Assembly: GCA_031253625.1 (NCBI GenBank) | Contig: JAIRVZ010000092.1 | Coordinates: 1 to 64,000, forward strand | Source: Dysgonamonadaceae bacterium | GTDB lineage: Bacteria > Bacteroidota > Bacteroidia > Bacteroidales > Azobacteroidaceae | DNA: 64,000 nt | Direction: 5' to 3' | Shown: piece after piece, positions 20,620 through 64,000 of the stretch | Layout: each line of letters opens with the position of its first letter | How positions within the stretch are numbered: position 1 is the stretch's first letter | Translations under genes and position numbers: made by a program | The notes under the pieces: model-generated | Database searches by the model: none | Seen by the model: the letters and a program-made list of their open reading frames with translations, nothing else | Told to the model about the DNA's origin: nothing

Positions 20620-21159
20620 TTATATTTTACTTTTTGTTATCAAATCAAATTTAAATAGTGATGTTATGTTATTTTTAAAATCAACCGGACTTTCCTGTTT
20701 ATAGATAGTCATTGGAATAATTCTATCAACAGAATCCTTATGATCAATAAAAATTCTACTAACGCCATGATGGATTATTCCGCCAGGAGTTTGTAGACTA
20801 TCTTTTTCTATAATCCATTCAGATAAATACGAGTCTGTTTGAAAAAAATCTTTTTTACTCCTTTTGGTTAATTCAAAAGCAATTTGATAGCAACAACAAG
20901 ATGTATCAACAACTGAAATTTCCTTCCCCGATTCATCCAATGCAAAACGCCAACATCTTTCTAACCATGCTTTTTCAATAGGAAAAGTTAAAGAATCATT
21001 AAAGGAATGAATGTTTTTTATTTGATACTCTTTAATAAATACATTTCTTTCTTTTGATTCTTGAATATCCTTTGAAACACCCATTTGTCCTTTGTAATCA
21101 ATGTTACATGCACTCATTAAAAGAATAAAAACTGTGATTGTATTTAAATATTTTTTCAT
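20620..21159 (-). CDS. lipoprotein, third gene of module 1 (candidate immunity/partner)
   Basis: Lipobox FILLMSAC; ATGA overlap with the upstream gene. Confidence 0.6.
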   Translation of the reverse strand: MKKYLNTITVFILLMSACNIDYKGQMGVSKDIQESKERNVFIKEYQIKNIHSFNDSLTFPIEKAWLERCWRFALDESGKEISVVDTSCCCYQIAFELTKRSKKDFFQTDSYLSEWIIEKDSLQTPGGIIHHGVSRIFIDHKDSVDRIIPMTIYKQESPVDFKNNITSLFKFDLITKSKI

Positions 21160-21827
21160 TTTTTTTCTTCATTTGGATTTTCCGGCAATGTCGGAATGAT
21201 TTTTTCTTTATTGTTATTCTCAATCTGATTAAACCTGCTATTGGGAGTTGAGGGAAGAGATCCCTTAATACCATCATCGCTATCTACATAAATATACCCG
21301 GGGTCTAAACCCACCGCTTTTAATCCTTCAGAGACAACATCGGCACAATTATTGAATATAGCATTGTACCAACTTTTTGCGGATTCAAGTGATTTAGATT
21401 TTGCAGCATCATCTTGTATAGCATCTGTTGAAAATCGAACATTTTGAGTGTATCCTCCAGATAATCCATCATTGAAAAATTCATTTATTGTTTTAAATTT
21501 CTTATCTGAAGATAAAGATGGACCACCCGTTAACTCATTAGAATACCACTGATCTTTTTGCCTTCCATCTTTTGAGATATACGTCCATCCTGTTTTATCA
21601 TTCCCAACTAAAATTGCCGTGTGTCCATGATTTTTTCCTGCACTTTGTGCTCCATTGGGATTATTAATGACAACAATATCTCTTCCATCGGGATCAATCG
21701 CATTAATGGGATTATTCGCACAATAAGCATACGGTGAAATAGGATAATATCCATGTGCCAAATTTACTGAAAATAAAAATGCAATGCAAATGATTGCAAT
21801 AGTAACAAAAAATTGTTTTGTTTTCAT
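21156..21827 (-). CDS. secreted protein: signal peptide + minimal RHS-core tip + C-terminal papain/NlpC-like domain
   Basis: SPYAYCANNPINAIDPDGRD follows the signal peptide; HGHTAILVGNDKTGWTYIS ... NNCADVVSEGLKAVG. Confidence 0.65.
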   Translation of the reverse strand: MKTKQFFVTIAIICIAFLFSVNLAHGYYPISPYAYCANNPINAIDPDGRDIVVINNPNGAQSAGKNHGHTAILVGNDKTGWTYISKDGRQKDQWYSNELTGGPSLSSDKKFKTINEFFNDGLSGGYTQNVRFSTDAIQDDAAKSKSLESAKSWYNAIFNNCADVVSEGLKAVGLDPGYIYVDSDDGIKGSLPSTPNSRFNQIENNNKEKIIPTLPENPNEEKK

Positions 21828-21850
21828 AACTTCAAAATTTTAAATGTTTT

Positions 21851-22939
21851 TTATTCTGTTTGTAATTTTATTGTTTGTTTTCTCTTTGCCTCTTCTCCAA
21901 CTTTATCAAGTTTATTGCTTAACTCTTCACTCATTTGTTCCCAACCCAACCGTTCCAATTCGGTAGAAATCTCTTTCAATTTACTTTCAAGAAATAAAGT
22001 ATATTCATCTATCACATATTCATTATACGCTAAATATTTCATATAGACTACTTCGAGAGATTTTCCTTTAATTATAAGTGCTTTAGGATGTTGAGGATAA
22101 TATTCTAATGATTTATTGACACATAACCATGTAAAATCGTCATAAACCCGATATTTATTCCAATATCCGAATGCAAGGTCAGCAAGTTGAGAGGCAACTG
22201 TTTCCTTTGCAGTCAAAGGATGAAGATAAATCTTATTTTCAATCGCCTTTTCGGTTATTTCAAAGTTTTCTTTAATCCAAAATTCAGGGGTCAGTTGATG
22301 TGTTGTAAGTTCTACGTTTACCCAATCTTCAGGGAAAAAATTATCTTCATCACGATAGCGGATAAATACATGCTGAGGTGCGTATGTAATGTATGCTTCC
22401 GCATCAATAGCCTCGGCAAGCACTCTGTAATACATGGGCAGAGAGCGACATTGCCCGCTGTGTGTCTGCATAACACCGGTTACAAATTGCTTGGTAAAAT
22501 CCTCTGTTGCTTCAGTATCGTTAAAATTGTATGTAAATGGTTTATAACCATTGCCGGAATAAGGGCGGAAAAAATATTCAATAAGTGCCAAATTTTTAGC
22601 AGTCTTGTATTTTTCCATTTGATTTGCCCTTATAAATCTTTTGACGAAGTTAGCGGCAGAATCTATCGTATTACAATATTTTTCATAATTCAGTTTTCCA
22701 TCGAGATAAGCCCATTCGGCAAGAAAAACAGCACGTTTGATGCTCAAAGATTGCTTACCGTCGAGCATATCGGATATTTCGAGATATGCGGCATTATATA
22801 ATGAACTTTGTGTTTCTATTTGAACACCATCAGTGAGTTCCGGTGGAATTGATGCTTGCGCTTGCGCATTGCTGACAAATGTTACTAAGATAAAGCTTGT
22901 TGTGTAAACTGCTACTAAAAATTTCTTTAATATATTCAT
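21851..22939 (-). CDS. exported transglutaminase-like protein (module 1)
   Basis: THSGQCRSLPMYYRVLAEA, APQHVFIRYRDEDN, WVNVELTTHQ fit a Cys-His-acid triad; paralog of 58830-59930. Confidence 0.7.
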   Translation of the reverse strand: MNILKKFLVAVYTTSFILVTFVSNAQAQASIPPELTDGVQIETQSSLYNAAYLEISDMLDGKQSLSIKRAVFLAEWAYLDGKLNYEKYCNTIDSAANFVKRFIRANQMEKYKTAKNLALIEYFFRPYSGNGYKPFTYNFNDTEATEDFTKQFVTGVMQTHSGQCRSLPMYYRVLAEAIDAEAYITYAPQHVFIRYRDEDNFFPEDWVNVELTTHQLTPEFWIKENFEITEKAIENKIYLHPLTAKETVASQLADLAFGYWNKYRVYDDFTWLCVNKSLEYYPQHPKALIIKGKSLEVVYMKYLAYNEYVIDEYTLFLESKLKEISTELERLGWEQMSEELSNKLDKVGEEAKRKQTIKLQTE

Positions 22940-55033: not shown

Positions 55034-55981
55034 ATGAAAAAAATCAGCACATTATTAACCGGTTTTCTTATGATGTTTTTTGCTGCTTCTGCGCAAATAT
55101 CTGATATCGAATTACGTGAAACATTGGATTTAATAAATAAAGACAGTCTTAGTCACACAGTGCAGTGTATGGAGAACTTTGAATCGCGACGATGTAATAA
55201 AACCATTGGTCACAACAAAAAAGTTGCCCAATATTTGGTAGATCGCCTAAAAGCGTATGGTATTGAAAATGCCCGCATTGACTCTTTTGTGGTATCAATT
55301 CCGAATCATTGGTTAGCAGGCCCGGTAAATCAATATATGTATAATGTATTGGGAACCTTGAAAGGCACAGGAGAAACCGATTCTACCGTGATTATCGGTG
55401 CGCATTTGGATGCCATCTCTTTTACAGGAACGCGTCCGGATTTTATTCTCGCAGAAACCGCGCCCGGCGCCAATGATAATGCTTCCGGTTGTGCCGTGAT
55501 GATTGAAATGGCACGAATTATCTACGAAAATAATTTAAAACCGTATCACAATATTGATTTTATGGCTTATGATGCGGAAGAGATCGGCTTATTGGGCTCT
55601 TACTACGATGCAGGAAAAAGACGTGCAGCAAACGAAAATATCATTGTAATGTTGAATAACGATGTGGTGGCTTATGAGCCGGAAGAAGATTGGGGGATAT
55701 ACCTTGTCGGACATAGTAATGCATTAGATGTTATAGAAAAAGCAGAACAAGCACTGATAGATTACACCATTGTTTCTCCGTTTTTTGCAGCCCTTGATAC
55801 TGAAAGTAGCGACAACTATCCTTATTACAAAAAAGATTATAAAGCTATTCGCTTTGTCGGGAAAAATTACAGTGCGTTTCCTCATTCTGAGAATGACCAT
55901 TCAGAAATTTTGAATTTTGAATTTTGCCGGCAAATTGCAAGAATGAATTTCGTTTTGCTTGCACATTACGCTGTTTTTTAA
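55034..55981 (+). CDS. M28 family metallopeptidase, secreted
   Basis: VIIGAHLDA; PGANDNASGCAVMIEMA; DFMAYDAEEIGLLGS. Confidence 0.93.
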   Translation: MKKISTLLTGFLMMFFAASAQISDIELRETLDLINKDSLSHTVQCMENFESRRCNKTIGHNKKVAQYLVDRLKAYGIENARIDSFVVSIPNHWLAGPVNQYMYNVLGTLKGTGETDSTVIIGAHLDAISFTGTRPDFILAETAPGANDNASGCAVMIEMARIIYENNLKPYHNIDFMAYDAEEIGLLGSYYDAGKRRAANENIIVMLNNDVVAYEPEEDWGIYLVGHSNALDVIEKAEQALIDYTIVSPFFAALDTESSDNYPYYKKDYKAIRFVGKNYSAFPHSENDHSEILNFEFCRQIARMNFVLLAHYAVF

Positions 55982-57069
55982 TCCTTTTGGTTCAACTCAT
56001 CCAACGGACTTCTAACATTCCTCAACTGGCGATTACCCACTTTAGCATAAATCTGGGTAGTTTTTATATCTCTGTGTCCCAGTAGCTTTTGGATAAAAGT
56101 CATGTCGGTTCCACATTCCAACAAATGCGTAGCATAACTATGCCGTAAGCCATGAATTCCCACCGATTTATTGATTTTCGCTTTTTGCATGGCATTTTTA
56201 AAAACAGCCTGTACACTGCGAATAGCATATTGTCCGCCATATTGACCCTCAAACAGGTATATTTTAGGACGATAAGCCCGATAATAATTTCGCAAATCAT
56301 CGAGAATGCTTTCGGGTAAATTTACATATCTATCCTTTTTCCCTTTCGCATTTTCGATATGTACCATCATTCGACTGCTGTCGATATTGGTAATTTTCAG
56401 ATTCACAATTTCGCTAACACGCAAACCCATTCCGTAGCACAATTTAAGCATCAACAAATGTTTCGGATTTTCAACTTGAGCAAAAATCCTCACAATATCT
56501 TTCTTGCCGATAACTTTAGGAAGCTGTGATTTCTTTTGTGGGCGGGGAATTTCCTCAAAGAAAATCTTCTCACGATGCAGCACTTGCTCAAAGTAAAATT
56601 TTACGGCGTTCATTCGACTATGAATAAGGTTTTCCGAAAATTTTAACTTTGTTATGCAATACAAAAAATAAGACCGTAAACGTTCAGGTGTCAATGTATC
56701 TACAGATGTACCTTTAAGCAAATAGAGTAATTGTGAAAATTCGGCACAGTAAATTCTAATGGTGCTTGGACTGTATGCTTTGAGCAAAAGCAATTCATGC
56801 ATTCGTTTGAGTGCAACAAGATTTACCGGATGAATTTGACTAATAACGGCTTTCCCCATTTCCGTTTTAGGCATCAAGCCAATTTCATTTCTAATGGCAC
56901 TACTATCGGGCAAATACCAACATTTTTTAGAAGAGCTCCACTTAGCTGTAGGAACCTTTTCCTTCAATTCATTTTTTAATAAAAGATTGTAGGGGAAATG
57001 CACAAAAATAACATTTTTATTTTGGTATTCGCCTGTCAAGAATTGGTAATTTTGATGGTTAAATGACAT
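55978..57069 (-). CDS. tyrosine recombinase/integrase with extra N-terminal domain
   Basis: GMGLRVSEIVNL, HGLRHSYATHLLECG, LGHRDIKTTQIYAKV, C-terminal VRSPLDEL; start taken at MSFNHQ. Confidence 0.92.
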   Translation of the reverse strand: MSFNHQNYQFLTGEYQNKNVIFVHFPYNLLLKNELKEKVPTAKWSSSKKCWYLPDSSAIRNEIGLMPKTEMGKAVISQIHPVNLVALKRMHELLLLKAYSPSTIRIYCAEFSQLLYLLKGTSVDTLTPERLRSYFLYCITKLKFSENLIHSRMNAVKFYFEQVLHREKIFFEEIPRPQKKSQLPKVIGKKDIVRIFAQVENPKHLLMLKLCYGMGLRVSEIVNLKITNIDSSRMMVHIENAKGKKDRYVNLPESILDDLRNYYRAYRPKIYLFEGQYGGQYAIRSVQAVFKNAMQKAKINKSVGIHGLRHSYATHLLECGTDMTFIQKLLGHRDIKTTQIYAKVGNRQLRNVRSPLDELNQKD

Positions 57070-57136
57070 ACGCATTTCTAAATATAAATTTTTACAAACA
57101 TACATAAAAACGAGGTAATATTATAATGATTTTTCA

Positions 57137-57426: not shown

Positions 57427-58437
57427 ATGAAATCATTAGAAATTGAAGGTTATATTTTTAACCCTGTCATTCCAGAAGAGAAAGTATCTGTAACTAATAT
57501 TGATGTATATTATGGATATACTGATGTGATAATAAAAAGGAAATTAGTAGAACAATTAAAAACTATTCCTGAATTAGGGCGGGAACTTGTCAATTTGCCT
57601 AGTGGAATTAAAATACAACTACCTTATGTAGAAATTGGGATAAGAATAAATTCTGTTAAATTTAATAACCTTAAAGCATTCGTTGTTGAAGATAACTACT
57701 ATGATTTAGTATTGGGAAAAAGTGCCATTTCAGAACTTTTTGATTTTGAAAATATTCAAGTTTCAAATAGGAAAAAAGAAAGTAAGGAATTATTATCAAT
57801 AAGAATTCATTCAGTAGACAATTCTTATAAGATTTTAAATGTTGAAAATTTTCTACGAGAAAGTAGAAGACTTTTCAATGTATCAATGATTATTGAAGGA
57901 GAAATTGAAGTAAACACATTAGAAGATATTGATAATGTAATTGATAATGAAATCGGTATTCCTGAAAATAAAAAATTACAATTATCTTGGATTGAGGAAG
58001 GCTCAATTTGGATTACATTGAAATCAACAGCAAAGTCTCTATTTTCTTTCGGAAAAATGCTTGTTGGTGGTAAATCCTCAATATTGGAAGAAAAATTTTA
58101 TGAAGCAAAGAAAAATAAAATTGAAAGTGAAACTCTACAAGAACTACTACCACAAATTATAGAAGAAAGGAAAGCGGAAAAAGAAAAATTTACAGCAGAA
58201 CACCGCCACGAAACAAACAAGATATGGAGAGAAGAAATGAAAGAGCAGATTTCTTTTTTAGATGAAATGATTACCAAGACTATCAAACCCGAACTTGCTT
58301 TAAAATTGATAGAAAAGAAAAATGAAATCATAGAAACATTATGCAATCAAAATATGCTACCAGAGATAATAAATATGCCTGATAAACAAATGCTTGGAGA
58401 TAATCCTCGAAATTTGCCCATAATCTACGAAGAATAA
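57427..58437 (+). CDS. hypothetical protein, unit 1 ORF; N-terminus resembles a degenerate retropepsin-like fold
   Basis: Complete ORF; AFVVEDNYYDLVLGKSAISELFDF resembles the second half of clan AA proteases, DTG triad absent. Confidence 0.65.
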   Translation: MKSLEIEGYIFNPVIPEEKVSVTNIDVYYGYTDVIIKRKLVEQLKTIPELGRELVNLPSGIKIQLPYVEIGIRINSVKFNNLKAFVVEDNYYDLVLGKSAISELFDFENIQVSNRKKESKELLSIRIHSVDNSYKILNVENFLRESRRLFNVSMIIEGEIEVNTLEDIDNVIDNEIGIPENKKLQLSWIEEGSIWITLKSTAKSLFSFGKMLVGGKSSILEEKFYEAKKNKIESETLQELLPQIIEERKAEKEKFTAEHRHETNKIWREEMKEQISFLDEMITKTIKPELALKLIEKKNEIIETLCNQNMLPEIINMPDKQMLGDNPRNLPIIYEE

Positions 58438-58476: not shown

Positions 58477-58604
58477 GCTAACGAGCGGTTTCACGCAAGC
58501 GGGGGTGTATGCCCGCAGAAAGTTTTGTGGGAATTTGGAAGTTTATCGCCCGCCCGAACATTTGTGAAACCCCCGCCTGCGTGAAGCCGCCACCACGTAT
58601 GCAA
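58477..58604 (+). repeat. attC-like inverted repeat 1
   Basis: GCGGTTTCACGCAAGCGGGGGT (58486-58507) pairs with ACCCCCGCCTGCGTGAAGCCGC (58570-58591), 20/22; flanked by GGCTAAC and GTATGC. Confidence 0.6.
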
Positions 58605-58829: not shown

Positions 58830-59930
58830 ATGGATAGTTTTGTCATACAATTTGTGGAAACCAAATGGAAATATTGTTTGGTCGCTACCTTTTGTGTGCT
58901 TTCACTTTCCGTTGTTAACGGTCAAACAATAGATACCAAAATCCTGCCGGGACTTACTGGTGGCGTTCAAATAGAAACACAAAGTCCGTTATATAATGCT
59001 GCATTTCTCGAAATTTCCGATATGCTTGACGACAAGCAGCCTTTGAGCATCAAACGTGCTGTTTTCCTTACGGAATGGGCTTACCTTGATGGAAAGTTGG
59101 ACTATGAGGAATTTTGTAAAACGATAGACAATGCTGCTGATTTTATCGAAAAATTCATAAAGGCAAACGGAATGGAAAAATACAAGACCGCCAAAAACAT
59201 GGCGCTTATCGAATATTTTTTCCGCCCTTATTCGGGTAACGATCATAAGCCTTTTATATACGATTTTAGCGATGTTGAAGGAATCGAAGATTATACTAAA
59301 CAATTTGTAAGCAAAGTTATGCAAACACACTCAGGGCAATGCCGTTCTTTGCCAATGTACTATAGAGTGCTTGCTGAAGCTGTCGATGCTGAAGCATACA
59401 TCGCATACGCACCACGCCATGTATTTATCCGCTATCGTGATGAAGATAATTTTTACTCTGAAGAATGGGTAAATGTAGAGCTTACAACACATCAATTAGT
59501 CCCTGAATTTGCGATTAAAGAAGGTTTTGAAATAACCGAAAAAGCGATTGAAAATAAACTTTATCTTCATCCGCTGACTGCAAAGGAAACGGTTGCTGTT
59601 CAACTTGCCGACCTTGCATTTGGATATTGGGCTAAATATAAGTTTTGTGACGATTTTACATGGCTATGCGCTAACAAATCGTTAGAATATTATCCTCAAC
59701 ATCCCAAAGCTCTTGCAACTAAAGGAAATTATCTCGAATCGGCTATTATAAAACGTTTGGCATACAACGGATATGGCATTGATGAGCAGATTCTATTTCT
59801 TGAAAGCCAATTGAAAATGGTTTCCGAACAGTTGGAACATTTGGGTTGGGAAGATATGAGTGAAGAGTTGGAAGCTGAACTCAATAAGGTTGGCGAAGAC
59901 GTAAAGAGAGAACAAGAAGAAAAATTTTAA
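58830..59930 (+). CDS. exported transglutaminase-like protein (module 2)
   Basis: Clear paralog of 21851-22939; same THSGQCRSLPMYYRVLAEA / APRHVFIRYRDEDN / WVNVELTTHQ motifs. Confidence 0.7.
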   Translation: MDSFVIQFVETKWKYCLVATFCVLSLSVVNGQTIDTKILPGLTGGVQIETQSPLYNAAFLEISDMLDDKQPLSIKRAVFLTEWAYLDGKLDYEEFCKTIDNAADFIEKFIKANGMEKYKTAKNMALIEYFFRPYSGNDHKPFIYDFSDVEGIEDYTKQFVSKVMQTHSGQCRSLPMYYRVLAEAVDAEAYIAYAPRHVFIRYRDEDNFYSEEWVNVELTTHQLVPEFAIKEGFEITEKAIENKLYLHPLTAKETVAVQLADLAFGYWAKYKFCDDFTWLCANKSLEYYPQHPKALATKGNYLESAIIKRLAYNGYGIDEQILFLESQLKMVSEQLEHLGWEDMSEELEAELNKVGEDVKREQEEKF

Positions 59931-59962
59931 ACAAAATAAAAGACAATAAAAATTTAGATATT

Positions 59963-60781
59963 ATGAGAACAAGACAATTTTTTATCACTACTGCAATGAT
60001 TTGCATTGCATTTTTATTTTCAACAAATTCAGCATACAGCTTTCCTTGGCAAAGTCCGTATGCACACGCAGCAAATAATCCGATTAGGTATGTTGATGTA
60101 AATGGGGATAGTATATCGTTCTCCTATCAGTATAATGCAAATAATGAGTTGACAGGAGTAACAATGAATGTTACGGGTAAAGTCATTAATGTTTCTTCCA
60201 ACTCGAAAGTAAATATGCAGGCTGCTGCAAATCGAATTTCCAATCAAATAGCATCTTCTTTTAGTGGAAATGTAAATGGTGTTTCATTTTCAACGAATGT
60301 AAATTTATCTGTTGCTAATTCTATGGATGATGTCGCAGACAGCGACCATGTATTTGCCTTAGCTGATATGGGAAGTATTGCAACACCAGATGGGAGTAGA
60401 ACTCCTAATGGTGGGTCAAATATGATGGGAGGAAAAGTTGCTTTTATAGATGTAGATTATTTTTCAGGACCTTGGGATACATCATTTGGAGATACAGGAC
60501 CAAGAACTGCAGGTCATGAATTTGGTCACTTGGCAAATTTATCTCATGTAACAGGAGGCTCAAATTTAATGATTCAGGGAGCCGGAAATTCTTGGGGCTC
60601 TTTTGGGGCAACAAAAATTAATAATGGTCAATTAAAATCAATCCACGGGTCATATATAGGTGGATATTTGAATTTAGGTAGTAATTATGAGTTAATTCCT
60701 AGAGTTAATCCTACAACAGGAAGGATAGAAATGAAAGCAATGCCTAATAGAGGAGGAGTAAAATCAGTAATAAAATACTGA
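59963..60781 (+). CDS. secreted protein: signal peptide + minimal RHS-core tip + metzincin-like zinc protease domain
   Basis: SPYAHAANNPIRYVDVNGDSI after the signal peptide; HEFGHLANLSH (HExxHxxxxxH), then SNLMIQG. Confidence 0.7.
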   Translation: MRTRQFFITTAMICIAFLFSTNSAYSFPWQSPYAHAANNPIRYVDVNGDSISFSYQYNANNELTGVTMNVTGKVINVSSNSKVNMQAAANRISNQIASSFSGNVNGVSFSTNVNLSVANSMDDVADSDHVFALADMGSIATPDGSRTPNGGSNMMGGKVAFIDVDYFSGPWDTSFGDTGPRTAGHEFGHLANLSHVTGGSNLMIQGAGNSWGSFGATKINNGQLKSIHGSYIGGYLNLGSNYELIPRVNPTTGRIEMKAMPNRGGVKSVIKY

Positions 60782-60782
60782 A

Positions 60783-61466
60783 ATGACAAGATTGACATAC
60801 ATATTTGTTCTTTTTATTATAATTCTGACAGGTTGTAATAAGTATTTTAAGCCTACTGGTATCATTGACAGGACAGAGGAGTTTTCTGGTAAAAACATTT
60901 GGGTTTCCTTAAACGACAAAGAGAGGATAGATGGTTATACAAGAATTGGAAATTCTATATTTGGAGGAGAAATTGCTTGTAACATAGAGCCGCTAAAAAA
61001 TATTGATACTGAAACTTTTCAAGTCTTGGCAGGTACGCAATACGCAAAAGACAAGAATAATGTTTATTATCCAATAGAAATTCCTTGCATTGATTTTGTT
61101 GACTGTAGCGTTTGTTTTTATGATAGAATAATTGTAGAAGGAGCCAATCCAATAGATTTTGAATATTTAGACAAAGATTATGCAACAAGTGGTAATATAG
61201 TTTTTTTTCGAGGAGAATTATTAAAAGGTGCTGATGGTGAAACATTTAAAGTAATCGAAGGCCCAAGATATTTCTACTTTGCAACAGATAAAAACAATGT
61301 ATATAAGCACAACAAAATCGTAAAAGATGCAGACCCTTCTACTTTTTATTATGATGACACCGACTCAAGAAATGTAATTTCAGAAATTTTCGATAAATAT
61401 ATAATTGGAGACAAGAATAATAAATGGGAATACTTGCCTCCTGATGAAATGAAAAAGATAGAGTAG
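60783..61466 (+). CDS. DKNYY-like lipoprotein (candidate immunity/partner, module 2)
   Basis: Lipobox IIILTGC; repeated DKNNVYYP / DKNNVYKH; 1-nt gap from the upstream stop. Confidence 0.65.
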   Translation: MTRLTYIFVLFIIILTGCNKYFKPTGIIDRTEEFSGKNIWVSLNDKERIDGYTRIGNSIFGGEIACNIEPLKNIDTETFQVLAGTQYAKDKNNVYYPIEIPCIDFVDCSVCFYDRIIVEGANPIDFEYLDKDYATSGNIVFFRGELLKGADGETFKVIEGPRYFYFATDKNNVYKHNKIVKDADPSTFYYDDTDSRNVISEIFDKYIIGDKNNKWEYLPPDEMKKIE

Positions 61467-61739: not shown

Positions 61740-61870
61740 GCATACAACGTGCAGTTTGGCAAAATGGCGGGCTTGTCTCGTCCGAAATTTTGTTTATATT
61801 TGTAGCGGTAGCTCTCGTCCGAGCGGTGGTGGAAACCCGCCACTTCGCCAAGCTGCTGCTCCGTTGTATG
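61740..61870 (+). repeat. attC-like inverted repeat 2
   Basis: GCATACAAC ... CGTTGTATG; GCAGTTTGGCAAAATGGCGGG pairs with CCCGCCACTTCGCCAAGCTGC, 18/21. Confidence 0.65.
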
Positions 61871-62013
61871 TAATGCGCGGGCAACCGAGCAGTAGTGCAA
61901 CTTTGAAGCGAAAAAACTGAAAATTTTGTACGAAAAAATATTTTTCGTGTTTTATTGGGAAGAAAAACGAAAAAAGATTGTATCTTTGCAAATTATAATT
62001 GTGAATATGTCAT

Positions 62014-63387
62014 ATGGAGTTATCAACAAACAATAATAATTCAGAAAAAGAATTATTCCAATCATTAAGTCAGAGTTATTCGGAGATTTTACCACCGAAT
62101 AAAGAGACTTTGTTGTTGATAGTTTGGTTGTATAAAAAAGTTGAAAATGGCTCTATTGCAGAAGAATTTGATGAAAAAGACTTTTATGATACATTTGACG
62201 AAGTAAAAGATTTTTTGCAGATTGAGAAAGATAAAAATGTGGAATTAATTTCTCAAAAAATTAGCAATCATTTTTATCAAACAGGAAGCGTTGGAAATAA
62301 ACATTTTATGTGTTTAACTATATATGCAAAGAATCTTTGCCGACTTTTGATAGATGAAATTCAACCTGAATTGGTAAAATTGGAGTTATATCATACTTTC
62401 AAAAGAACATTACCATTACAAGATGAGGATTTGAGAGATATAGAAACACTCAAATATTGGTATGACAAGCATTTTCTGCCTGCAAGAAATGAAATTTATA
62501 AACATATCGAACAACTACACAACGACGTTTCTGAAAAAATATCGGAATTAACGGTACTTTTGAAAAAGAATAACGATAATCCGAAAGAGCAAATAGAATC
62601 TTACGGAAGAATTTTTGAAGACCTCGCTCAAAGAGTTCAAGGTATAATTAGTGCCTTGGATTACAAAGATGAAACTTTGCGAAAAGTAAAATCCTCAAAA
62701 AATGTATTTTTGACTAATCGGGAAGATTTTGAAAAATACAATCATATCCAAGAAGAAGTCGAATTATTTTTTAATAGCATTGACAGACGAGTTTCTTCGA
62801 TAAGTGATAAAATTCAATTAGCCTCAAAACGATTGAGAAACTTATTGGATACTTTGAAACATAAACAACAATTTAAAATCAACATAGAAAAATTGTTGTT
62901 GTTTTTATTGCAGAGTAGCAAAAGAGAGAAAAAAGGCAGTAAACCTGATTTTGAAATTATTGTGCACGAAAAACTGAGAAACAAGTGTCTGTCGTTTATT
63001 CCGACAAAATTTGTTTCAATTCCAAAATTAGACTTTCAAGTACAGAACAAAATTGAGCCACAACAAACGAAATACGATAAACAACACGAACAAGCAGAAA
63101 GAAACAAAGGACTTGCTTTGCTCGAAATACAAGAATCTACCGCAAAATGGCTTGACGAAATAAATCAGCATTTGCTTTCCAATGAAATTTTGGAGTACGA
63201 CAAATGGTTTGATAAAATTATTGAGAAAGAAAATAATTTGGAAGTTCCTATCAAAGTTTGTTTTGGTTTGATTGATGAACATAATAACTCAAATGACAAG
63301 CAAATAACTATCGAAAAAAAGAAAATCAGTAAAAATAATCACGATTTATCATTATGGAAAATGCAAATACAGAATATCAATTCTTAA
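62014..63387 (+). CDS. MukF/kleisin-like protein (Wadjet JetA- or MksF-like)
   Basis: N-terminal winged-helix-like region, long coiled coil; overlaps a MukE/JetB-like gene. Confidence 0.5.
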   Translation: MELSTNNNNSEKELFQSLSQSYSEILPPNKETLLLIVWLYKKVENGSIAEEFDEKDFYDTFDEVKDFLQIEKDKNVELISQKISNHFYQTGSVGNKHFMCLTIYAKNLCRLLIDEIQPELVKLELYHTFKRTLPLQDEDLRDIETLKYWYDKHFLPARNEIYKHIEQLHNDVSEKISELTVLLKKNNDNPKEQIESYGRIFEDLAQRVQGIISALDYKDETLRKVKSSKNVFLTNREDFEKYNHIQEEVELFFNSIDRRVSSISDKIQLASKRLRNLLDTLKHKQQFKINIEKLLLFLLQSSKREKKGSKPDFEIIVHEKLRNKCLSFIPTKFVSIPKLDFQVQNKIEPQQTKYDKQHEQAERNKGLALLEIQESTAKWLDEINQHLLSNEILEYDKWFDKIIEKENNLEVPIKVCFGLIDEHNNSNDKQITIEKKKISKNNHDLSLWKMQIQNINS

Positions 63388-64000
63388 ACTCGGACGATGC
63401 AATAAAATATTTTGCTGATGCAGATATTGCCCTAAAACAAGGGCGGCACATTCAGAATTATGGCAACGATACACAGATATTTTATTTCATAGATGAATAT
63501 TTCGATAAAGGACTTGAAGAATATTACGCCATTTTTTGGTTGATGAAATTAACCAAAGATTCAAATGATAATGAGCGTTTTTATTATCTCGAACCACCCG
63601 AAGGTAGCAGAGCGAAATTTGGGAATCGGTTTAAAGAATTAGAGGGTGAAAAAATAATTTTTGCCATTCTTTTGTTGAATTTGGAGAAAGAAAAGTATTT
63701 TGAAGAAAAAGAATTTTCGTGGCAGGAACTTGAACAAATCTTCAAAGAAAGTGAAAACAAAACCCTTTGGAAAAAATTGTTGTTTGGCAAAGACAAAGAA
63801 AACTATACACCAACGGAAGAACAAAATGTAAAAAAGAAAGTAAGGCAAATTTTGAGTGATTTTGAAAAATTGGGTTGGATTGTTATGAAAAGTGAAGATG
63901 AAATGCAATTTGACATATTGCCAAGTATCGCCCGAATTGGTCGACTTTATGCTGATGTAATCAATAATATTGAAACAATAGAAGAATTTTTAAGCAATGA
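63354..64000 (+). CDS. MukE-like (JetB/MksE-like) protein, truncated by window end
   Basis: ATG at 63354 inside the previous ORF; LKQGRHIQNYGNDTQIFYFIDEYFDKGLEEYYAIFWLMKL ... LSDFEKLGWIV...FDILPSIARIGRLYADVI; no stop before the window end. Confidence 0.5.
   Translation, partial: MENANTEYQFLNSDDAIKYFADADIALKQGRHIQNYGNDTQIFYFIDEYFDKGLEEYYAIFWLMKLTKDSNDNERFYYLEPPEGSRAKFGNRFKELEGEKIIFAILLLNLEKEKYFEEKEFSWQELEQIFKESENKTLWKKLLFGKDKENYTPTEEQNVKKKVRQILSDFEKLGWIVMKSEDEMQFDILPSIARIGRLYADVINNIETIEEFLSN

What the first reader, a model, noticed from the sequence alone, without database searches (positions are those of the whole stretch)
58830..61466. Module 2: transglutaminase-like protein + RHS-tip metzincin + DKNYY-like lipoprotein
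SEEN: three tightly spaced genes. The middle product has a signal peptide fused directly to a ~20-aa RHS-core end motif (SPYAHAANNPIRYVDVNGD), with no RHS repeats, then HEFGHLANLSH and a likely Met-turn (NLM). The third has a lipobox and DKNNVY repeats. KNOWN: RHS-core ends usually precede swappable toxin domains. INFERENCE: a Sec-exported effector with a lipoprotein partner or immunity factor and a processing enzyme, inside an integron-like unit.
Basis: partly seen in the sequence, partly recalled or inferred. Interest (0 to 1): 0.85.

Follow-up and report, generated by a model that had tools for sequence, protein, structure and literature searches.

The report
Transglutaminase-linked minimal-RHS toxin–immunity module
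This is one copy of a widespread and apparently unnamed bacterial weapon cassette, in which a constant transglutaminase-like gene travels with a secreted protein made of a signal peptide, the last scrap of an RHS toxin shell and an exchangeable toxin (here a zinc protease), followed by a matching protector gene; it is useful because it shows RHS-type toxins can work without, or split from, their shell.

Summary
The three genes are as described. The middle protein is a signal peptide joined to a ~20-aa RHS-core tip and a metzincin-type C-terminus. The module is real and recurrent.

A second copy lies in the same window (20620-22939, minus strand). It has a 73%-identical transglutaminase-like (TG) gene and the same signal-peptide/tip start, but an unrelated C-terminus and partner. 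In public genomes, 74 of 79 TG loci carry an adjacent signal-peptide/RHS-tip gene (62 of 63 with enough downstream sequence), usually within 50 nt, then a small secreted or lipoprotein partner. One hundred C-termini fall into 57 unrelated clusters, including named toxin domains. Partners are related only when toxins are (21/86 versus 0/4,100 pairs). The TG Cys/His/Glu triad is invariant in 185 proteins, and TG–tip–toxin fusions exist.

In Rhizobiaceae, TG sits where an RHS toxin gene is split: a shell protein that stops before its tip, TG, then a signal-peptide tip-toxin and, in most, a partner gene.

Best reading: a polymorphic toxin–immunity module whose carrier is reduced to the RHS tip plus a catalytic TG. 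What TG does is inferred. DKNYY is not a dedicated immunity family, and the integron setting is circumstantial. New variant of a known kind.

The parts
58830..59930 (+). Transglutaminase-like (TG) secreted protein, 366 aa; constant gene of the module; C171, H197, E217 invariant
   Evidence: model pLDDT 83, weak TG-fold matches
59963..60781 (+). Exported RHS-tip effector, 272 aa (signal peptide + RHS tip + variable C-terminus)
59963..60040 (+). Signal peptide of the effector (MRTRQFFITTAMICIAFLFSTNSAYS)
   Evidence: sequence inspection; same start in the second module
60053..60109 (+). RHS-core tip SPYAHAANNPIRYVDVNGD, the constant/variable junction; DPxG degenerated to DVNG
60110..60778 (+). 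Variable C-terminal toxin domain, metzincin-like
60515..60547 (+). Zinc-binding motif HEFGHLANLSH (residues 185-195)
   Evidence: invariant H185, E186, H189 in A7
60563..60571 (+). Probable Met-turn NLM (residues 201-203)
   Evidence: NLM/NIM/NFM in homologues
60783..61466 (+). Partner lipoprotein, DKNYY family (PF13644), putative immunity protein
   Evidence: caveat
21851..22939 (-). Second copy of the module: TG-like protein, 73% identical
21156..21827 (-). Second copy: signal peptide + RHS tip (57% identical over 51 aa) with an unrelated C-terminus
20620..21159 (-). Second copy: unrelated lipoprotein partner
58478..58602 (+). attC-like imperfect palindrome upstream of the module; 8 further copies or part-copies in the genome
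61741..61871 (+). attC-like imperfect palindrome downstream of the module (ATACAACG...CGTTGTAT)
55978..57105 (-). Tyrosine recombinase near the array, between XerA/C/D and IntI; lacks the stretch equivalent to the IntI insertion

Best explanation
The three genes are one cassette of a polymorphic toxin-immunity system whose carrier has shrunk to a signal peptide and the last ~20 residues of an RHS core, accompanied by a constant secreted transglutaminase-fold enzyme. Shown by comparison: TG, signal peptide and RHS tip are the constant part; the C-terminus after the tip is swapped at will, and the same C-terminal families also occur on real RHS proteins; the next gene changes with the toxin. Inferred: all three products pass the inner membrane by Sec; the metzincin domain digests proteins in the periplasm or at the surface of competitor cells; the DKNYY lipoprotein blocks it in the producer and its kin; and the catalytically intact TG acts on the tip (cutting it, or transferring the tip-toxin onto a carrier or surface protein), replacing the job that a full RHS shell and its own cleavage do in ordinary RHS toxins.
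For: A second module in the same window has a constant TG/tip but a different toxin and partner. Own-genome loci C41 and C97 have near-identical first ~115 aa and unrelated C-termini. 74/79 TG loci have an adjacent tip gene, 62/63 with >=1.5 kb downstream; 96 direct TG-to-tip adjacencies, 92 within 50 nt; among distant ORFs in the same loci 7/138. Reverse search: by hand count, 26 of 30 near-full-length N-module matches lie on a contig with a TG match nearby. TG-tip-toxin fusions. 100 C-termini in 57 clusters, with Toxin-JAB1, Peptidase_M91, Ntox21, Ntox33, Tox-REase-7 and Hydrolase_2 hits. Partner covaries with toxin, 21/86 versus 0/4,100 pairs, and 79/96 partners look secreted versus 154/448 other ORFs. 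TG triad C/H/E in 185/185. Window metzincin homologues end true RHS proteins with a lipoprotein-like gene downstream. Cassette duplication with a TG-end scar. Split RHS/TG/tip-toxin genes in Rhizobiaceae.
Against: No toxicity, immunity, secretion or enzyme activity was tested. No secretion route across the outer membrane is identified. The exact toxin/partner pair here is seen once, and DKNYY elsewhere is not toxin-linked. The metzincin model is only moderate (pLDDT 67). Same-toxin pairs may partly reflect related loci, which would inflate the covariation. The TG survey scan selected on a pattern containing the catalytic Cys, so Cys conservation is partly by construction (His and Glu are not).
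Confidence: 0.8

Rival explanations
1. A housekeeping or nutritional secreted protease with its own lipoprotein inhibitor, like the metzincin/potempin pairs of Tannerella; the RHS tip is a fossil and TG a bystander.
For: The fold resembles secreted metzincins (snapalysin, MMPs, fragilysin); a potempin-metzincin complex is among the PDB matches (8b2n); the partner is a lipoprotein.
Against: The protease is only one of 57 unrelated C-termini on the same carrier, including nuclease and cell-wall-hydrolase types; TG and tip are the constant parts, present with non-protease effectors.
Confidence: 0.1
2. Orphan RHS C-terminal cassettes (reserve toxins) that merely gained a signal peptide and are not deployed.
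For: Tip-plus-toxin ORFs without RHS repeats are common beside RHS genes (short open frames with tip-only matches).
Against: Tight operonic link to TG in nearly every locus, a conserved ~75-aa N-module specific to these loci in most members, conserved secretion signals, and fusions to TG.
Confidence: 0.07
3. TG is not a processing enzyme but a peptide-binding scaffold (menin-like TG plus TPR-like helices) that holds the tip-toxin during export. This is a rival about one step only, compatible with the toxin-immunity reading.
For: Structure matches include menin (TG-like domain plus TPR) with TM up to 0.44; helical C-terminal half; Zhang et al. 2012 propose binding/anchoring for inactive TG domains in RHS toxins (PMC3482391).
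Against: The Cys-His-Glu triad is invariant in all 185 TG proteins of both length classes and retained in Rhizobiaceae at ~25% identity, which argues for catalysis.
Confidence: 0.3

Closest known systems
Polymorphic toxin systems with RHS carriers (Zhang et al. 2012, PMC3482391)
   Same: Constant exported N-terminus, RHS-core tip, swappable C-terminal toxin domains, adjacent immunity-like gene, several shared toxin families
   Different: No RHS repeats or shell here; effectors are ~220-400 aa; a separate TG gene is part of the module
Inactive-transglutaminase N-terminal domains of RHS toxins (Zhang et al. 2012)
   Same: Secreted transglutaminase-fold domain linked to RHS toxins; fused TG-tip-toxin forms exist here too
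   Different: Theirs are fused, followed by RHS repeats and have lost catalytic residues; these are mostly separate genes with an intact C/H/E triad
MafA/MafB of Neisseria (as described in PMC3482391)
   Same: Constant partner gene upstream of a secreted toxin with constant N-terminus and variable C-terminus
   Different: MafA is a lipoprotein, MafB-N an unrelated domain restricted to Neisseria; no TG and no RHS tip
TANFOR polymorphic toxins of Bacteroidetes (PMC7073777)
   Same: Bacteroidota, Sec signal, variable C-terminal toxins, downstream immunity genes
   Different: Large TANFOR/Fn3 carriers; no TG, no RHS tip
Metzincin peptidases (snapalysin, MMP, fragilysin folds)
   Same: HExxHxxxxxH, Met-turn-like NLM, predicted fold
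   Different: Carried as an exchangeable domain behind an RHS tip; Asn where most metzincins have Gly in HExxHxxGxxH

Membership tests
Polymorphic toxin system | Constant N-terminal part with variable C-terminal domains | tested here: met
   Modules 1 and 2; 100 C-termini in 57 clusters
Polymorphic toxin system | Adjacent immunity gene that changes with the toxin | tested here: met
   Covariation 21/86 versus 0/4,100 pairs; protection itself not tested
Polymorphic toxin system | C-termini include recognised toxin domains | tested here: met
   Toxin-JAB1, M91, Ntox21, Ntox33, Tox-REase-7
Polymorphic toxin system | Toxicity and contact- or secretion-dependent delivery | not testable with these tools
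   needs bench work
RHS toxin | Tandem RHS/YD repeats forming a shell | tested here: not met
   272-aa ORF with a single ~20-aa tip; PF05593 below cut-off
RHS toxin | Core-end tip with DPxG | tested here: inconclusive
   SPY...NNP...D-V-N-G: tip present, Pro of DPxG replaced
Inactive-TG RHS toxins (Zhang 2012) | Loss of catalytic residues | tested here: not met
   C/H/E in 185/185
Inactive-TG RHS toxins (Zhang 2012) | TG fused upstream of RHS repeats | tested here: not met
   Separate gene in the window; the fusions found (L032, L194) carry a tip but no repeats in the sequence read
Transglutaminase-like superfamily | Pfam profile over cut-off | tested here: not met
   PF13369 E = 0.0076, 16.2 bits versus 23.5
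Transglutaminase-like superfamily | Cys-His-acid triad and fold | tested here: met
   Triad; PNGase, menin and 3isr among the top Foldseek matches but none with E below 0.001
Metzincins | HExxHxxGxxH/D and Met-turn | tested here: met
   HEFGHLANLSH (Asn for Gly) and NLM; conserved in homologues
Metzincins | Metzincin fold | tested here: inconclusive
   pLDDT 67; top PDB matches all metzincins, best E = 8e-4, TM by target up to 0.57
DKNYY family PF13644 | Pfam profile over cut-off | tested here: met
   E = 1.7e-19, 71 bits versus 25
DKNYY as dedicated immunity family | Linked to toxins elsewhere | tested here: not met
   No RHS tip or HExxH gene in the other DKNYY loci read
TANFOR toxins | TANFOR domain | tested here: not met
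   No NCBIfam model at E <= 1 for the three proteins
Integron cassette | Flanking attC sites | tested here: inconclusive
   attC-like palindromes 58478-58602 and 61741-61871; copies elsewhere ~0.9-1.1 kb apart; no functional or model-based attC test
Integron cassette | Integron integrase with IntI-specific insertion | tested here: not met
   Residues ~214-247 of IntI4 (2a3v) have no counterpart in the alignment; TIGR02249 189 bits versus 265 cut-off

The most novel reading that the evidence does not exclude
The TG/tip genes are a split-RHS toxin class: the toxin with its RHS tip is exported as its own small protein, and a dedicated transglutaminase covalently joins (or trims and hands over) it to a carrier, which is an RHS shell in Rhizobiaceae and something else in Bacteroidota. 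Delivery would then be assembled after export by an enzyme rather than encoded as one giant protein.
Probability: 0.2. Interest if true: 0.88.

Novelty: new variant of a known kind. Interest (0 to 1): 0.72.

Why it matters
It defines a compact toxin-immunity operon found across Bacteroidota and in Rhizobiaceae, whose constant gene (a catalytic TG) is easy to search for and whose variable gene gives a large set of unassigned small toxin domains with their partners. It also makes a mechanistic question testable: what the RHS tip does when the RHS shell is gone, and whether an enzyme can replace the covalent link and self-cleavage of ordinary RHS toxins. The Rhizobiaceae genes, where TG sits at the point where an RHS gene is split, are a natural experiment for this.

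Tried and rejected
Single-sequence scan of genome contigs with the window TG found nothing; an alignment-based scan did. Viral contigs gave only two loci, one of which (L115) has the same gene layout as a Dysgonomonas chromosomal locus (L076), and phage records none, so phage origin is not supported. PADLOC has no model for the three proteins. PDB sequence searches were uninformative for the middle protein and TG. DKNYY as a general immunity family was tested and not supported. The upstream 597-aa genes next to TG in Alistipes loci were checked as possible shells; their conserved part looks like a GspE-type ATPase (my reading of the sequence), so they are unrelated. A Rhizobiaceae-centred genome survey was not possible because only G handles are accepted as centres. 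Paper searches found no description of a separate TG gene linked to short RHS-tip toxins, but only open-access papers are held.

Full report
WHAT IS THERE. The window carries three closely packed genes on the + strand: a 366-aa secreted transglutaminase-like (TG) protein (58830-59930), a 272-aa exported protein (59963-60781) and a 227-aa lipoprotein (60783-61466), with gaps of 32 and 1 nt. The middle protein joins a signal peptide directly to SPYAHAANNPIRYVDVNGD, which is the end of an RHS core, and then to a domain with HEFGHLANLSH and NLM. Pfam gives sub-threshold Reprolysin_3 for the middle protein, sub-threshold Transglut_core2 for the first, and a clear DKNYY hit for the third. A strict RHS-tip pattern occurs twice in the window's six frames and never in 100 Markov-resampled windows.

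THE SECOND COPY IN THE SAME WINDOW IS THE KEY CONTROL. On the minus strand at 20620-22939 lies another module: TG 73% identical over 349 aa; a middle protein 57% identical over its first 51 aa (signal peptide plus tip) and unrelated after that; and a lipoprotein with no meaningful similarity. At DNA level the two modules align at 81% over about 1.09 kb (window 58947-60029, TG plus signal peptide) and then stop. The same genome has two more loci (contigs C41 and C97) where the first ~115 aa of the effector are nearly identical and the C-termini differ completely. This constant-then-variable pattern is the signature of polymorphic toxins.

SURVEY. An alignment of TG proteins (A2) found 247 encoding stretches in GTDB species genomes, of which the best 79 loci were kept. 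By record title they are nearly all Bacteroidota (Alistipes, Flavobacterium, Chitinophaga, Thermoflexibacter, Dysgonomonas and others), with a few Balneola/Balneolaceae and one labelled Chlorobiota. In 394 genomes of the window's order, 24 have TG at E <= 1e-10. Of the 79 loci, 74 have a signal-peptide/RHS-tip gene beside TG (62 of 63 where at least 1.5 kb lies downstream); there are 96 direct TG-to-tip adjacencies, 92 of them within 50 nt, and only 7 of 138 distant ORFs in the same loci have a tip gene within four genes. In the reverse direction, a search with the tip N-terminal module gave, by my hand count, 30 near-full-length matches, 26 of them on a contig with a TG match nearby, whereas tip-only matches are in ordinary RHS proteins and orphan cassettes. 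Layouts are TG-TG-tip-partner, TG-tip-partner-TG and TG-tip-partner. TG is fused to tip plus toxin in at least two genomes read in full (G048, G767), with a third likely (G141). In most members about 75 extra residues, matching no Pfam family, lie between signal peptide and tip; the window's form has lost them. In G013 (contig of Candidatus Symbiothrix Hs463_bin48, L104, the same GTDB family as the window) a second tip-toxin/partner pair has been added together with a 94-aa repeat of the end of TG, a trace of cassette insertion by recombination.

TOXINS AND PARTNERS. One hundred distinct C-termini fall into 57 clusters. Recognised families among representatives include Toxin-JAB1, Peptidase_M91, Ntox21, Ntox33, Tox-REase-7, Hydrolase_2 (cell-wall hydrolase) and Reprolysin-like peptidases; partners include DUF4279, LRR and DKNYY proteins. 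Partner genes start a median of 1 nt after the effector; 79 of 96 look secreted by a crude hydrophobicity test versus 154 of 448 other ORFs. Partners belong to the same cluster in 21 of 86 pairs with the same toxin cluster and in 0 of 4,100 pairs with different toxin clusters. Shared ancestry of loci may inflate the first figure, but the zero in the second is what a toxin-immunity relation predicts.

THE WINDOW'S TOXIN. Its nearest relatives are effectors of TG operons in Thermoflexibacter, a TG fusion (G767), and the C-termini of genuine RHS proteins in two other genomes (G708, G689), each of these two followed by a short gene with a lipoprotein-like start. The aligned set keeps HExxH in all members, and most keep a third His/Asp ligand and an N-[LIF]-M turn. 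The AlphaFold2 model is moderate (pLDDT 67, core strands and helices 80-93), but Foldseek's top PDB matches are all metzincins: fibroblast collagenase (E = 8e-4), snapalysin, archaemetzincin, MMPs and fragilysin. So this domain is an exchangeable metzincin that moves between RHS and TG-linked carriers at the tip.

THE TG PROTEIN. Cys171, His197 and Glu217 are present in all 185 TG proteins longer than 250 aa. The genome scan selected on a pattern around the Cys, so His and Glu are the unbiased part; Rhizobiaceae TGs at about 25% identity keep all three (by eye). The model (pLDDT 83) has a TG-like core and a helical, TPR-like C-terminal half; the best but weak matches are PNGase, menin and a Cytophaga cysteine-protease-like structure. 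Zhang et al. 2012 (PMC3482391) described catalytically inactive TG domains fused in front of RHS repeats and suggested anchoring. The present family differs in being separate, catalytically intact and without RHS repeats.

RHIZOBIACEAE: A SPLIT RHS TOXIN. A plasmid search with the window TG found five distant relatives. In Neorhizobium petrolearium and Rhizobium lentis, TG overlaps by 4 nt the end of a TcdB/RHS protein that stops right after RYYDPAFGRF(I/V)PKDD, without tip or toxin. TG is followed by a signal-peptide protein that begins with (A)(R/K)F(I/V)SPDTMDP...GTNRY...NDPINKSD.NGH and then carries a toxin-like region, and by a partner-like gene. In ordinary relatives (Rhizobium sp. TAL182, R. 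etli Mim1) the same stretch is continuous in one protein: RYYDPAFGRFISPDDWD...GTNRYSYSENDPVNKSDPNGH. In R. leguminosarum Norway and Mesorhizobium L-2-11, TG is again followed by a signal-peptide tip gene; in Mesorhizobium a stop follows the tip. TG is thus found at the point where an RHS gene has been cut in two, which ties TG to the tip and suggests that it acts there.

MECHANISM. Shown by comparison: the module, its constant and variable parts, toxin/partner covariation, and the TG-tip link. Inferred: Sec export of all parts; protein digestion in a competitor's envelope; protection by the lipoprotein; a catalytic role of TG on the tip (cleavage or transfer). Not known: how the effector crosses the outer membrane and enters a target.

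SETTING. The module sits between two attC-like palindromes (58478-58602, 61741-61871). The first has eight further copies or part-copies in the genome, some 0.9-1.1 kb apart, one downstream on the same contig. A tyrosine recombinase lies at 55978-57105; it resembles IntI4 and XerA/C/D but has no counterpart to IntI4 residues ~214-247. An integron-like cassette is plausible but unproven; module 1 was not examined for such sites.

NOVELTY. No paper found in the open-access library describes this operon. It is a new variant of polymorphic toxin systems; the split-RHS/TG-assembly reading would be a larger departure and is given separately with its probability.

Noticed in passing
62014-64000 and on (contig C89, locus L186:7015-13134): Next unit after the downstream attC-like site: an MksBEF-like condensin operon (MksE PF21980 hit); the MksB-like gene appears as two ORFs (411 and 646 aa), so it may be frameshifted or split. 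PADLOC gives no match for these genes.
   Followed up: partly
L186:13149-14884 (contig C89, beyond the window): DUF6088 gene followed by AbiEii (PADLOC E = 1.7e-86), a toxin-antitoxin/abortive-infection pair, then another attC-like site at C89:69914-70032: the array seems rich in conflict genes.
   Followed up: partly
57427-58437: 336-aa ORF between the recombinase and the first attC-like site, with weak retroviral-type aspartyl protease similarity (gag-asp_proteas E = 0.016); function unknown.
   Followed up: no
58478-58602 and copies at contigs C44, C74, C82, C100, C17, C89:69914: Dispersed attC-like palindrome family, AACGAGCGG...CCGCCACCACGTT, at several chromosomal places, mostly single.
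   Followed up: partly
L214, L215, L216, L217 (Rhizobiaceae/Phyllobacteriaceae plasmids): RHS/TcdB genes that end before the tip, with TG and a signal-peptide tip-toxin downstream; in Mesorhizobium L216 a stop codon follows the tip, leaving a 77-aa ORF.
   Followed up: partly
L033:7197-7481: 94-aa ORF repeating the end of the TG-A gene between two toxin cassettes, a likely scar of cassette duplication; a similar TG-end fragment lies at L194:745-1026.
   Followed up: no
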